DNA from: Thermoleophilaceae bacterium
Lineage (GTDB): Bacteria; Actinomycetota; Thermoleophilia; Solirubrobacterales; Thermoleophilaceae
DNA length: 61,604 nucleotides
Assembly (NCBI GenBank): GCA_014534235.1
Contig: JACVRW010000005.1
Coordinates: forward strand, 1-61,604
Direction of reading: 5' to 3'
The translations under genes and the position numbers were made by a program. A model generated the notes under the pieces. That model did no database searches, was not told the origin of the DNA, and saw only the letters and a list, made by a program, of their open reading frames with translations. Below are positions 35,651-39,464 of this stretch, piece by piece. How positions within the stretch are numbered: position 1 is the stretch's first letter; every line of letters begins with the position of its first letter.

Positions 35651-37348
35651 GTGACGCGACTTTCCAGGTATTTCCTGCCGACCACCCGCGAGGCGCCCGC
35701 CGACGCAGAGGCGGCGTCCCACCGGCTGCTCGTGCGAGCCGGACTGGCGCGGCAGCTCGGCGCCGGGATGTGGACCTGGCTCCCGGCGGGGTGGCGGGCC
35801 CACCGCAAGGTGGAGCAGATCATCCGCGAGGAGCTCGATGCGATCGGCGCGGCCGAGGTGCTGATGCCGGTCCTGCAGCCGGCCGAGCTGTGGAAGCGCA
35901 GCGGACGCTACGACATCGACGAGGTGTTCAAGCTTCGGGACCGGCGCGGCGCGGAGCTCGTGCTGGCGATGACCCACGAGGAGAACCTGACCTGGCATAT
36001 CGCCCGCGAGGTCCGCTCCTACCGCGACCTTCCGAAGCTCCTCTACCACTTCCAGACCAAGGAGCGGGACGAGCCCCGACCGCGCGCGGGGGTGCTTCGC
36101 ACGCGCGAGTTCATCATGAAGGACTCGTACAGCTTCGACCGCGATCTCGAGGGCCTCGACCGCTCGTACGAGCTGCACATCGAGGCGTATGACCACATCT
36201 TCGACCGCTCGGGCCTCGAGTGGTACCGGGTCGAGTCCGACGTGGGGATGATGGGCGGCCTCGGTGCCCACGAGTACATGGCCCCCTGCGCCGCCGGCGA
36301 GAACGAGGTCGCCCTGTCCGAGGCCGGCTATGCGGCGAACGTCGAGGTGGCCTCGGCGACGCCCCAGCCGATCGACGGCCTCCCGGAGCCGCTCCCCGAG
36401 CCGCGCCCCGTCGAGACCCCCGGCGCGACCACCATCGATGCCGTCTCGAGGATGCTCGGCGTGCCTGCCGGCGCGCTCATCAAGGCGTTTCCCCTGTTCG
36501 TGGACGGTCGTGGCCCGGCGCTCGTGGTGATCCGCGGCGACCACCGCTTGAACGAGGTGAAGCTTCGGAACGCGCTCGGGGCGGCGGCCCGGCCCGCCGA
36601 GCCCGAGGAGGTCCGTGAGAACTTCGGGGCGGAGGGCGGCTTCATCGGGCCGGTGCGGGCACAGGTGGAGGTCCTGGCCGACGAGGCGCTGCGCGGCCTG
36701 AGCGGCCTCGTGGCGGGGGGCAACGAGCCCGACGTCCACCTGGTCGGCGTCGAGCCGGGGCGCGACTTCAAGGCCACCTGGGTCGACGTGCGCCGGGTGG
36801 AGCCGGGCGACACCTGCCCGAACGGCGCCACCATCCGGATCGAGCCCGCCATCGAGGTGGGGAACATCTTCAAGCTCGGCCTCCGCTACTCGGAGCCTCT
36901 GGGCGCCCACTATCTCGACGAGGAGGGGCGCGAGCAACCGATCTGGATGGGGTCGTACGGCATCGGGCCGGCGCGGATCGTCGCCGCCGCGATCGAGCAG
37001 TTCCACGACGAGCACGGCATCGCCTGGCCCCGTTCGGTTGCACCGTTCGACGTTGAGCTGGTGACGCTCGGCAGGCAGGGCGAGGAGGCCCGGCGCGTGG
37101 CGGACGTGCTCTACGAGCAGCTCCGCGGCGTCGGCCTCGACGTGCTGTACGACGACCGGGAGATGAGCGCCGGCGAGAAGTTCGCCGACGCGGAGTTGCT
37201 CGGCTGCCCGCTCCGACTCACGGTCGGGCGGCGAAGCATCGAGGCCGGAGAGGTCGACGTGCAGATCCGCCGCGGCCGAGAAAAGCGATCGGTGCCGCTA
37301 GATGGGGCGGCGGAGGCGGCCGCGGATCTGTTCTACACGCTGCCGTGA
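35651..37348 (+). CDS. proS: Prolyl-tRNA synthetase, bacterial type
   Basis: 565 aa class IIa synthetase. Motif 1 region GMWTWLPAGWRAHRKVEQII; motif 2 FQTKERDEPRPRAGVLRTRE followed by FIMKDSYSF; motif 3 GSYGIGPARIVAAAIEQ. A YbaK-like editing (INS) domain lies at about 225-390 with ALIKAFPLFVDGRGPALVVI, where K is the editing lysine. The anticodon domain occupies the last 110 residues. It charges tRNA-Pro and hydrolyses Ala-tRNA-Pro. GTG start at 35651 from a leaderless promoter. A free-standing YbaK-like deacylase is encoded at 55133. Confidence 0.95.
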   Translation: MTRLSRYFLPTTREAPADAEAASHRLLVRAGLARQLGAGMWTWLPAGWRAHRKVEQIIREELDAIGAAEVLMPVLQPAELWKRSGRYDIDEVFKLRDRRGAELVLAMTHEENLTWHIAREVRSYRDLPKLLYHFQTKERDEPRPRAGVLRTREFIMKDSYSFDRDLEGLDRSYELHIEAYDHIFDRSGLEWYRVESDVGMMGGLGAHEYMAPCAAGENEVALSEAGYAANVEVASATPQPIDGLPEPLPEPRPVETPGATTIDAVSRMLGVPAGALIKAFPLFVDGRGPALVVIRGDHRLNEVKLRNALGAAARPAEPEEVRENFGAEGGFIGPVRAQVEVLADEALRGLSGLVAGGNEPDVHLVGVEPGRDFKATWVDVRRVEPGDTCPNGATIRIEPAIEVGNIFKLGLRYSEPLGAHYLDEEGREQPIWMGSYGIGPARIVAAAIEQFHDEHGIAWPRSVAPFDVELVTLGRQGEEARRVADVLYEQLRGVGLDVLYDDREMSAGEKFADAELLGCPLRLTVGRRSIEAGEVDVQIRRGREKRSVPLDGAAEAAADLFYTLP

Positions 37349-37968
37349 GGCAGCCGCTCACGAGGCGCCGGCTGCTCGGGCTCGACCGCTCGGGTGGTCC
37401 GCCGCCCGAGACGCTCCGCGATCAGCCGCTCCACCCGTGGACGATCCCGAACGCGATCGGCTTCCTCCGCATCGGGCTCATTCCAGTGTTCGTGGTGCTC
37501 GCTCTCGGGTCGGGGGACGGCCGCGACACCACCGCCACGGTCGTATTTTCCTTCATCGCGGCCGGCGACTACCTCGACGGCATGGTGGCGCGGATCACGG
37601 GCCAGTACAGCCGGCTCGGCGCGCTGCTCGACCCCCTGACCGACCGCCTGCTCGTGATCTCCGGCGTGATCGTGGCCTGGGAGTTCGAGCTCCTGCCGCC
37701 CTGGGCGCTTGCGGTGGTTGCCGCCCGCGAGGCATTCATGCTGCTCCTGACCCGGGTCGCGCTGCGGCGGGGGCTCGACGTCTCCGTGAACGTGATCGGC
37801 CGCTTCGCGGTATGGCCAACGATGGGGGCCCTCGGACTCTCCATGATCATAGAGACGTGGGTGTCGGAGGCCCTGCTGTACATCGGCCTCGCCCTCACGC
37901 TTGCGGCGACCGCCCGCTATCTGCAGGATGGGTGGCGGGCGCTGCGCGAACGCTCAACCTCTACTTGA
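37345..37968 (+). CDS. pgsA: CDP-alcohol phosphatidyltransferase (PgsA-like)
   Basis: 207 aa membrane enzyme. The CDP-alcohol transferase signature D-x2-DG-x2-AR-x8-G-x3-D-x3-D is complete (Asp75 to Asp100: GDYLDGMVARITGQYSRLGA followed by LLDPLTD). Four to six hydrophobic helices follow. It most likely makes phosphatidylglycerophosphate or a cardiolipin-type product from CDP-DAG, the product of CdsA upstream. GTG start overlapping the proS stop. Position next to garA and the MerR gene parallels the mycobacterial pgsA2-garA-Rv1828 neighbourhood. Confidence 0.92.
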   Translation: MRQPLTRRRLLGLDRSGGPPPETLRDQPLHPWTIPNAIGFLRIGLIPVFVVLALGSGDGRDTTATVVFSFIAAGDYLDGMVARITGQYSRLGALLDPLTDRLLVISGVIVAWEFELLPPWALAVVAAREAFMLLLTRVALRRGLDVSVNVIGRFAVWPTMGALGLSMIIETWVSEALLYIGLALTLAATARYLQDGWRALRERSTST

Positions 37969-37976
37969 GCATCGGC

Positions 37977-37982
37977 TATAGT
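37977..37982 (+). promoter_or_regulatory. -10 box, leaderless promoter of rsiG-like gene
   Basis: TATAGT, the best -10 match in the region, ends 7 bp before the CTG at 37990. That is the same geometry as the other leaderless promoters here and supports that codon as the start. Confidence 0.5.
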
Positions 37983-37989
37983 CGCGTCT

Positions 37990-38268
37990 CTGCCCCGAAA
38001 GGACCGCATCGACACGTTTCCCGACCTCGGCGCGCTCTCGGACGAGGAGCTGAAGGACCTGATCCGGCAGCTCACAGACGAGGAGAGGGACGTCTCATAC
38101 CGGCGGCGGATCCTCCACGGCCGGATCGACATCCTGCGCGCGGAGCTCGTGAGCCGCCTGCGCACCAAGCACGAGGCGGGGGAGTCGCTCATCAGCGGAT
38201 CTGACGTTCGCCAGCTGACGAGCATCCTGGCGGGCAAGGGCATCCCTTCCGAGGCGGACCCGGAGTAG
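37990..38268 (+). CDS. RsiG-type c-di-GMP-binding anti-sigma candidate (CTG start)
   Basis: 92 aa. The open frame has no ATG, GTG or TTG between the pgsA stop and the conserved region; CTG 37990 sits 7 bp after TATAGT, and ATC 38008 follows GAAAGGA as an alternative. The helix ALSDEELKDLIRQLTDEERD is followed by VSYRRRILHGRIDILRAELV. The pattern E-x3-S-x2-R-x3-H-x3-D (Glu32, Ser36, Arg39, His43, Asp47) matches the c-di-GMP motif of RsiG, the WhiG anti-sigma factor. Short deep-branching RsiG proteins carry one such motif and dimerise around c-di-GMP. No whiG gene is in the window. Confidence 0.75.
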   Translation: MPRKDRIDTFPDLGALSDEELKDLIRQLTDEERDVSYRRRILHGRIDILRAELVSRLRTKHEAGESLISGSDVRQLTSILAGKGIPSEADPE

Positions 38269-38274
38269 CGGCGC

Positions 38275-38739
38275 GTGTCGGTGCACTGCCCAGAGTGCGG
38301 CTTCGTGAACGCGGAGGGCGCCAACTACTGCCAGAAGTGCGGCGCCTTCCTCGGGGACGGCAAGGAGGGCGACACGACCGAGGTCTACCAGGTGGACGAG
38401 ACGGGTGAGATCAGGCCGGTCGACCTCGAGGAGGTGACCGGTGAGGGCGCCACGCTCGTCATCCGCTCCGGCGGCGGACGCTCGGGGGAGGCCTTCAACG
38501 TGAGCGGCGACCGGATGACGATCGGCCGCAGCCCCGACGCGGAGATCTTTCTCGACGACGTGACGGTCTCCCGCAACCACGCGCTGCTCGTCCGCCGGCG
38601 CGACGGCCTCTACATCGACGACCTCGGCTCGCTCAACGGAACCTACGTCAACCGGCGGCGCATCGAGTCGCACCGCCTCCGAGACGGCGACGAGCTCCAG
38701 GTGGGCAAGTACAAGCTCACCTACATCGACGAGCGATGA
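38275..38739 (+). CDS. garA: FHA-domain protein with zinc ribbon (GarA-like)
   Basis: 154 aa. An N-terminal zinc ribbon (CPECG, CQKCG; Cys5, 8, 19, 22) is followed by an acidic linker with DTTEVYQVDETGEI, resembling the ETT phosphoacceptor of mycobacterial GarA. The FHA domain (about 70-150) has MTIGRSPDAEIFLDDVTVSR, NHALLV and DLGSLNGTYVNRRRI, the phosphothreonine-binding loops. GarA-type proteins respond to Ser/Thr kinases and regulate 2-oxoglutarate/glutamate metabolism. GTG start 6 bp after rsiG; its stop overlaps the MerR gene. Confidence 0.85.
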   Translation: MSVHCPECGFVNAEGANYCQKCGAFLGDGKEGDTTEVYQVDETGEIRPVDLEEVTGEGATLVIRSGGGRSGEAFNVSGDRMTIGRSPDAEIFLDDVTVSRNHALLVRRRDGLYIDDLGSLNGTYVNRRRIESHRLRDGDELQVGKYKLTYIDER

Positions 38740-39464
38740 GCGCCGACGTCGAGGCCCGCGCTCGCCCGCGCAAGGAGAAGGCGCTGACGATCGGGGCCGT
38801 CTGCAAGCACCTCGAGCGCGAGTTCCCCGACATCTCCATCTCGAAGATCCGCTACCTGGAGGACCAGAAGCTGCTCTCGCCGCGGCGCACTCCGGGGGGC
38901 TACCGCCTGTACGGGCCGGCGGACGTGGACCGTCTCCGCACCATCCTGCGACTTCAGCGCGACGAGTTCCTCCCCCTGCGCGTGATCCGGCAGGAGCTGG
39001 CCTCGGGCCGGTCGGACAGCGACCTCTCTCAGGGGGCGTCGGAGCCACGCGCCCTGCGCCGGTCGACGTTCGCGTTGCGGGGGCCCGGCTCCCAGTACCG
39101 GCTCGACGAGGTCCTCGACGACACGGGCGCCGACCGCGCGCTCGTGAAGGAGCTCGAGGACTACGGGGTGATCAAGGGCGAGCGGCACGACGGCGAGGTC
39201 CTGTACGACGACACGGAGCGCGAGATCGTCCGTGCCGTCACGGAGCTGAAGCGCTTCGGCGTGGGCGGCCGGAACCTGCGCGTGTTCCGGACGTCGGCGG
39301 ACCGCGAGGCCGCGCTGCTCGAGCAGATCCTCGCCCCGGCACTGCGGTCGCGAAACCCGGAGCGACGCAAGGAGGCGGTGGAGGCGCTCGAGAACCTGGC
39401 CGCGATCGCCTCGCACCTGAAGCACCTGCTGCTGATCCGGGATCTCCGCAAGCTCGCGCGCTAG
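38736..39464 (+). CDS. MerR-family regulator, FtsR-like
   Basis: 242 aa. A MerR-type winged HTH (about 18-85) reads LTIGAVCKHLEREFPDISIS followed by KIRYLEDQKLLSPRRTPGGY, with RLYGPADVDRLRTIL next. A long C-terminal ligand or dimer domain follows. Gene order directly after a GarA-like FHA protein is that of mycobacterial Rv1827-Rv1828 and corynebacterial ftsR, whose product activates ftsZ. The FtsR assignment rests on domain order and synteny. ATGA overlap with garA. Confidence 0.85.
   Translation: MSADVEARARPRKEKALTIGAVCKHLEREFPDISISKIRYLEDQKLLSPRRTPGGYRLYGPADVDRLRTILRLQRDEFLPLRVIRQELASGRSDSDLSQGASEPRALRRSTFALRGPGSQYRLDEVLDDTGADRALVKELEDYGVIKGERHDGEVLYDDTEREIVRAVTELKRFGVGGRNLRVFRTSADREAALLEQILAPALRSRNPERRKEAVEALENLAAIASHLKHLLLIRDLRKLAR

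What the first reader, a model, noticed from the sequence alone, without database searches (positions are those of the whole stretch)
37990..38268. RsiG-type c-di-GMP anti-sigma with an apparent leaderless CTG start
The frame encodes E-x3-S-x2-R-x3-H-x3-D within a helical pair, the c-di-GMP signature of RsiG proteins that hold WhiG. It has a single copy, as reported for deep-branching actinobacteria. No ATG, GTG or TTG exists in frame before the motif; CTG sits 7 bp after TATAGT, like other leaderless starts here. Gene callers that demand canonical starts will miss it.
Basis: partly seen in the sequence, partly recalled or inferred. Interest (0 to 1): 0.7.

Follow-up and report, generated by a model that had tools for sequence, protein, structure and literature searches.

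The report
Single-motif RsiG anti-sigma, misread start

Summary
The frame is real and is RsiG: Pfam RsiG 78.4 bits (cut-off 27), the E-x3-S-x2-R-x3-H-x3-D motif once, dN/dS about 0.13 against a congener. WhiG, one diguanylate cyclase and one HD_5 protein are in the same genome. Single-motif RsiG with histidine is published for Thermoleophilia, where c-di-GMP and WhiG binding were shown, so this is a new member of a known kind. The leaderless CTG start is not supported. In 42 of 42 order-level relatives a canonical start (ATG; TTG in one congener) lies 25-26 codons before the motif, usually after a Shine-Dalgarno-like site. The homologous codon here is ATC at 38008, behind the same GAAAGGA as the congener; CTG 37990 is not conserved. 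The TATAGT box is a conserved promoter, but it would give an mRNA with a leader of about 18 nt. Whether ATC is a rare AUC start or a one-base assembly error cannot be settled here. Outside the finding: rsiG-FHA(GarA/OdhI-like)-ftsR order is conserved through the class. The shared promoter carries CTCAA-N7-TTGAG, matching the published FtsR box, which is also enriched upstream of ftsZ in these relatives. This predicts an FtsR-controlled operon tying the c-di-GMP/WhiG switch to cell division.

The parts
38008..38268 (+). rsiG coding sequence by homology (86 codons plus stop), first codon ATC
   Evidence: Pfam RsiG 78.4 bits; homologous start position in 42 relatives
38083..38130 (+). c-di-GMP signature ERDVSYRRRILHGRID (E-x3-S-x2-R-x3-H-x3-D), one copy
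   Evidence: motif and Q/H variant described in PMC8325347
37997..38003 (+). Shine-Dalgarno-like GAAAGGA, 4 nt before ATC
   Evidence: GAAAGGA or similar before the start in congener and several relatives
37990..37992 (+).
37977..37982 (+). -10 box TATAGT of a conserved promoter (TATACT or TATGCT in most relatives)
37951..37971 (+). inverted repeat CGCTCAA-N7-TTGAGCA, candidate FtsR box, overlapping the end of pgsA
   Evidence: published FtsR motif AACCCTAAAGTAAAGGTTGAGGGTA (PMC6683498); enriched upstream of ftsZ in relatives
37345..37968 (+). CDP-alcohol phosphatidyltransferase (pgsA-like), upstream neighbour
38275..38739 (+). zinc-ribbon plus FHA protein, GarA/OdhI-like (OdhI model 104.9 bits, below its cut-off of 200)
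38736..39464 (+). MerR-family regulator FtsR (221.7 bits, cut-off 150); start overlaps the FHA stop

Best explanation
The gene encodes a single-motif RsiG of about 86 residues. By homology it forms an antiparallel homodimer that binds a c-di-GMP dimer and, when c-di-GMP is high, sequesters WhiG; when c-di-GMP falls, WhiG is released and transcribes its genes (inferred from the solved Rubrobacter complex, not shown here). It is transcribed from a conserved promoter carrying an FtsR-type inverted repeat, as the first gene of an rsiG-FHA-ftsR cluster that is probably one operon. Translation begins at the codon homologous to the relatives' ATG, which reads ATC at 38008, after a Shine-Dalgarno-like site on a short leader, and not at a leaderless CTG. 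The ATC is either a rare AUC start or a one-base error in the assembly.
For: Pfam RsiG 78.4 bits vs cut-off 27; phmmer hits to S. venezuelae and R. radiotolerans RsiG structures; WhiG in the same genome, 277 bits, E = 2.7e-87 to WhiG of the solved S. venezuelae complex, with the sigma2 K-x3-G-R contact residues kept; RsiG and WhiG co-occur (Fisher p = 6e-5 in genomes at least 90% complete, not corrected for kinship); GGDEF protein with intact GGDEF, HD_5 protein; purifying selection; start position conserved in 42 of 42 relatives, TTG in congener G001; promoter, repeat and gene order conserved.
Against: ATC is not a normal start codon. No second assembly of this species was available to check it. 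No WhiG-type promoter was found in the own genome with strict patterns, so what WhiG controls is unknown. The window's repeat has 3 mismatches to the strict FtsR consensus used.
Confidence: 0.85

Rival explanations
1. Leaderless translation from CTG 37990: the transcript starts at or next to the C, and the protein is 6 residues longer than in relatives.
For: TATAGT to CTG distance fits the leaderless geometry; such geometry is enriched in the window (8 of 42 genes); no canonical start is in frame.
Against: The CTG and the codons after it are not conserved; L003 and L020 have stops directly before their ATG; 42 of 42 relatives start at the ATC-homologous codon. CUG gives about 0.86% of AUG expression in E. 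coli (figure cited in PMC11497404).
Confidence: 0.08
2. The ATC is an assembly or sequencing error (true sequence ATG), so nothing is unusual about the start. This is a sub-case of the best explanation.
For: Draft genome of 197 contigs, 84% complete; every relative that could be read in the order has a canonical codon there; the change needed is one base.
Against: No direct evidence of error; the congener G001 shows that this codon drifts (TTG), with a one-base length difference between the Shine-Dalgarno-like site and the start.
Confidence: 0.5
3. The gene is decaying: loss of the start codon has silenced it.
For: Loss of a canonical start.
Against: Frame intact with full motif; dN/dS about 0.13 against G001; promoter, Shine-Dalgarno-like site and WhiG retained.
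Confidence: 0.05

Closest known systems
Single-motif RsiG of Conexibacter woesei, Patulibacter medicamentivorans and Thermoleophilum album (class Thermoleophilia; PMC8325347)
   Same: One E-x3-S-x2-R-x3-[Q/H]-x3-D motif, small size, WhiG partner in the genome; the histidine form of C. woesei was shown to bind c-di-GMP (Kd 25 uM alone, 1.7 uM with WhiG)
   Different: No canonical start codon in this copy; genomic neighbours are not discussed in that paper's main text
RsiG of Rubrobacter radiotolerans (PDB 7lq2, 7lq3, 7lq4)
   Same: Homologous over the motif helix (E = 1.9e-10); homodimeric mechanism inferred for the window protein
   Different: Glutamine instead of histidine in the motif; controls type IV pili there; no WhiG-type promoters found here
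Twin-motif RsiG of Streptomyces (PDB 6pfj, 6pfv)
   Same: Same motif and WhiG partner type
   Different: Two motifs in one chain, acts as monomer; the window protein has one
odhI/garA-ftsR gene pair of Actinobacteria (PMC6683498)
   Same: FHA protein followed by FtsR; inverted repeat like the published FtsR box
   Different: Here rsiG stands before the pair; the FHA protein carries a zinc ribbon

Membership tests
RsiG (PF22802) | Profile match over the curated cut-off | tested here: met
   78.4 bits vs 27
RsiG (PF22802) | E-x3-S-x2-R-x3-[Q/H]-x3-D motif | tested here: met
   ERDVSYRRRILHGRID at 38083-38130
Single-motif RsiG subgroup | Only one motif, short protein | tested here: met
   One domain in a 99-codon open frame; one match in the genome
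RsiG (PF22802) | Cognate WhiG in the same genome with the c-di-GMP contacts of sigma2 | tested here: met
   G000:C174, 277 bits; K-x3-G-R kept in the alignment to WhiG of 6pfj
RsiG (PF22802) | Binds c-di-GMP; forms antiparallel homodimer; holds WhiG | not testable with these tools
   Needs purified protein
Leaderless CTG-start gene | -10 box about 7 nt before the start codon | tested here: met
   TATAGT 37977-37982, CTG 37990
Leaderless CTG-start gene | Start codon at the transcript end is conserved, and no start behind a Shine-Dalgarno-like site downstream | tested here: not met
   Not conserved; 42 of 42 relatives start at the codon homologous to 38008
FtsR-controlled operon | Repeat matching the FtsR box in the promoter, and ftsR in the cluster | tested here: met
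   CTCAA-N7-TTGAG-type repeat in most relatives; ftsR 221.7 bits; box enriched before ftsZ
FtsR-controlled operon | FtsR binds this promoter; genes are cotranscribed | not testable with these tools
   Needs binding assay and RNA data

The most novel reading that the evidence does not exclude
rsiG opens an FtsR-autoregulated rsiG-garA/odhI-ftsR operon throughout Thermoleophilia, so that c-di-GMP control of WhiG and transcriptional control of ftsZ are tied together; in this species the anti-sigma is in addition translated from a true AUC start, which would keep its dose low.
Probability: 0.2. Interest if true: 0.6.

Novelty: new member of a known kind. Interest (0 to 1): 0.3.

Why it matters
As an RsiG it adds one more member to a published group. 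The correction matters for annotation: a promoter-like box 7 nt before a CTG was read as a leaderless start, while comparison with relatives puts the start elsewhere. The conserved rsiG-FHA-ftsR order and the shared FtsR-type box suggest a testable link between c-di-GMP, the WhiG sigma factor and cell division in a deep-branching actinobacterial class; I found no mention of it in the main text of the RsiG evolution paper or in the passages of the FtsR paper that I read.

Tried and rejected
Strict WhiG-type promoter patterns (TAAA, 14-17 nt, GCCGATAA; one mismatch at spacing 15; TAAA-GCCGAT at 15-16) gave no hit, or one hit equal to the reversed control; none in the T2SSE region. EAL domain: none in the own assembly. 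FtsR box pattern with up to 2 mismatches in the own genome: 3 places, not more than the reversed control (5), so the own genome alone does not support it; the support comes from relatives. A scan of genome contigs for another genome of the same species gave none. The tree of RsiG domains is poorly resolved. Two scripts needed correction: reverse-strand loci, the FtsZ pattern. Loci L068 and L092-L094 were not resolved for the start codon and are not counted.

Full report
What is there. The protein matches Pfam RsiG at 78.4 bits (cut-off 27) and the RsiG chains of Streptomyces venezuelae and Rubrobacter radiotolerans in the PDB. The c-di-GMP motif ERDVSYRRRILHGRID is present once (38083-38130). 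A match was found in 52 of 61 genomes, the own one included, and in 119 of 149 sampled genomes of the class. Two relatives' contigs, recognisable by their lengths, are titled Thermoleophilaceae. Against congener G001, dN is 0.095 and dS 0.75: the gene is under purifying selection.

Partner and signal. WhiG is encoded at G000:C174 (277 bits, cut-off 189.6) and aligns over its length with WhiG of the solved S. venezuelae complex, keeping the K-x3-G-R contact residues of sigma2 (residues named in PMC8325347). The assembly (84% complete) has one GGDEF protein with an intact GGDEF, one HD_5 protein and no EAL. In genomes at least 90% complete RsiG and WhiG occur together: 32 have both, 5 neither, 1 and 1 only one of them (Fisher p = 6e-5, without correction for kinship; presence of WhiG read by hand from the score gap). 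Of two genomes of one genus, G049 lacks both and G051 has both.

The start. In relatives the start codon lies 25 or 26 codons before the motif: ATG in most, TTG in congener G001 (L002), TTG in L087 and GTG in L088. This holds for all 42 single-motif relatives of the order in which it could be read. In the window the homologous codon is ATC at 38008, preceded by GAAAGGA (37997-38003); G001 has GAAAGGA before its TTG. Protein similarity begins at the residue after this codon. In L003 a stop codon stands directly before the start and in L020 one codon before it, so a longer N-terminus is not general in the family. The TATAGT box is the -10 of a promoter conserved in relatives (TATACT, TATGCT), which there ends 27-56 nt before the start, against 25 here. 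Of 36 relatives with such a box, one (L015) has a CTG at +7, and it has its own ATG downstream. Transcription from TATAGT would give a leader of about 18 nt here (inference from the box position).

Leaderless geometry is indeed common in the window: 8 of 42 crude gene calls have TANNNT 5-8 nt before a candidate start, against 0-3 in other four-base bins. So the idea was reasonable, but for this gene the comparison with relatives goes against it. CUG gives about 0.86% of AUG expression in E. coli according to a figure cited in PMC11497404. I cannot tell a real AUC start from a one-base assembly error: only one genome of the species was available.

Surroundings. The order rsiG-FHA-FtsR was found at nearly all single-motif loci long enough to show it, with pgsA upstream and apt downstream at most loci of the window's order. 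FtsR is over its cut-off (221.7 vs 150). The promoter carries CTCAA-N7-TTGAG (window 37953-37969). The published FtsR motif of Corynebacterium glutamicum is AACCCTAAAGTAAAGGTTGAGGGTA (PMC6683498), which has similar half-sites and the same 7-base gap. Upstream of ftsZ in 26 genomes the best match to CCCTCAA-N7-TTGAGGG has 2.7 mismatches on average, against 5.2 in shuffled sequence. I infer that FtsR controls the rsiG-FHA-ftsR cluster. The own genome alone is weak evidence.

Known or new. Schumacher et al. 2021 (PMC8325347) described single-motif RsiG from Rubrobacteria and Thermoleophilia, including the histidine variant, its c-di-GMP and WhiG binding, and the homodimer. The window gene is a new member of that group. 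What WhiG controls here is unknown: strict WhiG-type promoter searches were negative, and the only T2SSE/T2SSF genes found had none nearby.

Noticed in passing
L062, L063, L079, L080, L081 (genus g19) and L099-L103 (g42, g51): RsiG proteins with two domains in one chain inside this class, where the 2021 paper reported only single-motif forms. In a weak tree g42 halves group with single-motif forms of their family and g19 halves with those of the order, apart from the C-terminal half of the Actinokineospora protein, which suggests further independent duplications.
   Followed up: partly
window, 42 crude gene calls: TANNNT 5-8 nt before a candidate start codon in 8 genes versus 0-3 at other offsets: leaderless transcripts seem common in this genome.
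   Followed up: partly
upstream of ftsZ in L123-L151: CCCTCAA-N7-TTGAGGG-like repeat upstream of ftsZ in most relatives, in line with FtsR control of ftsZ in this class.
   Followed up: partly
G000:C32:80301-81248 and G000:C48:7761-8717: Two full ftsZ-like genes in the window's genome and in most relatives.
   Followed up: no
G049 and G051 (same genus g30): G051 has both RsiG and WhiG, G049 neither, which would fit joint loss.
   Followed up: no
G050: L064, L065, L066: Three RsiG-like matches in one genome, two of them partial.
   Followed up: no
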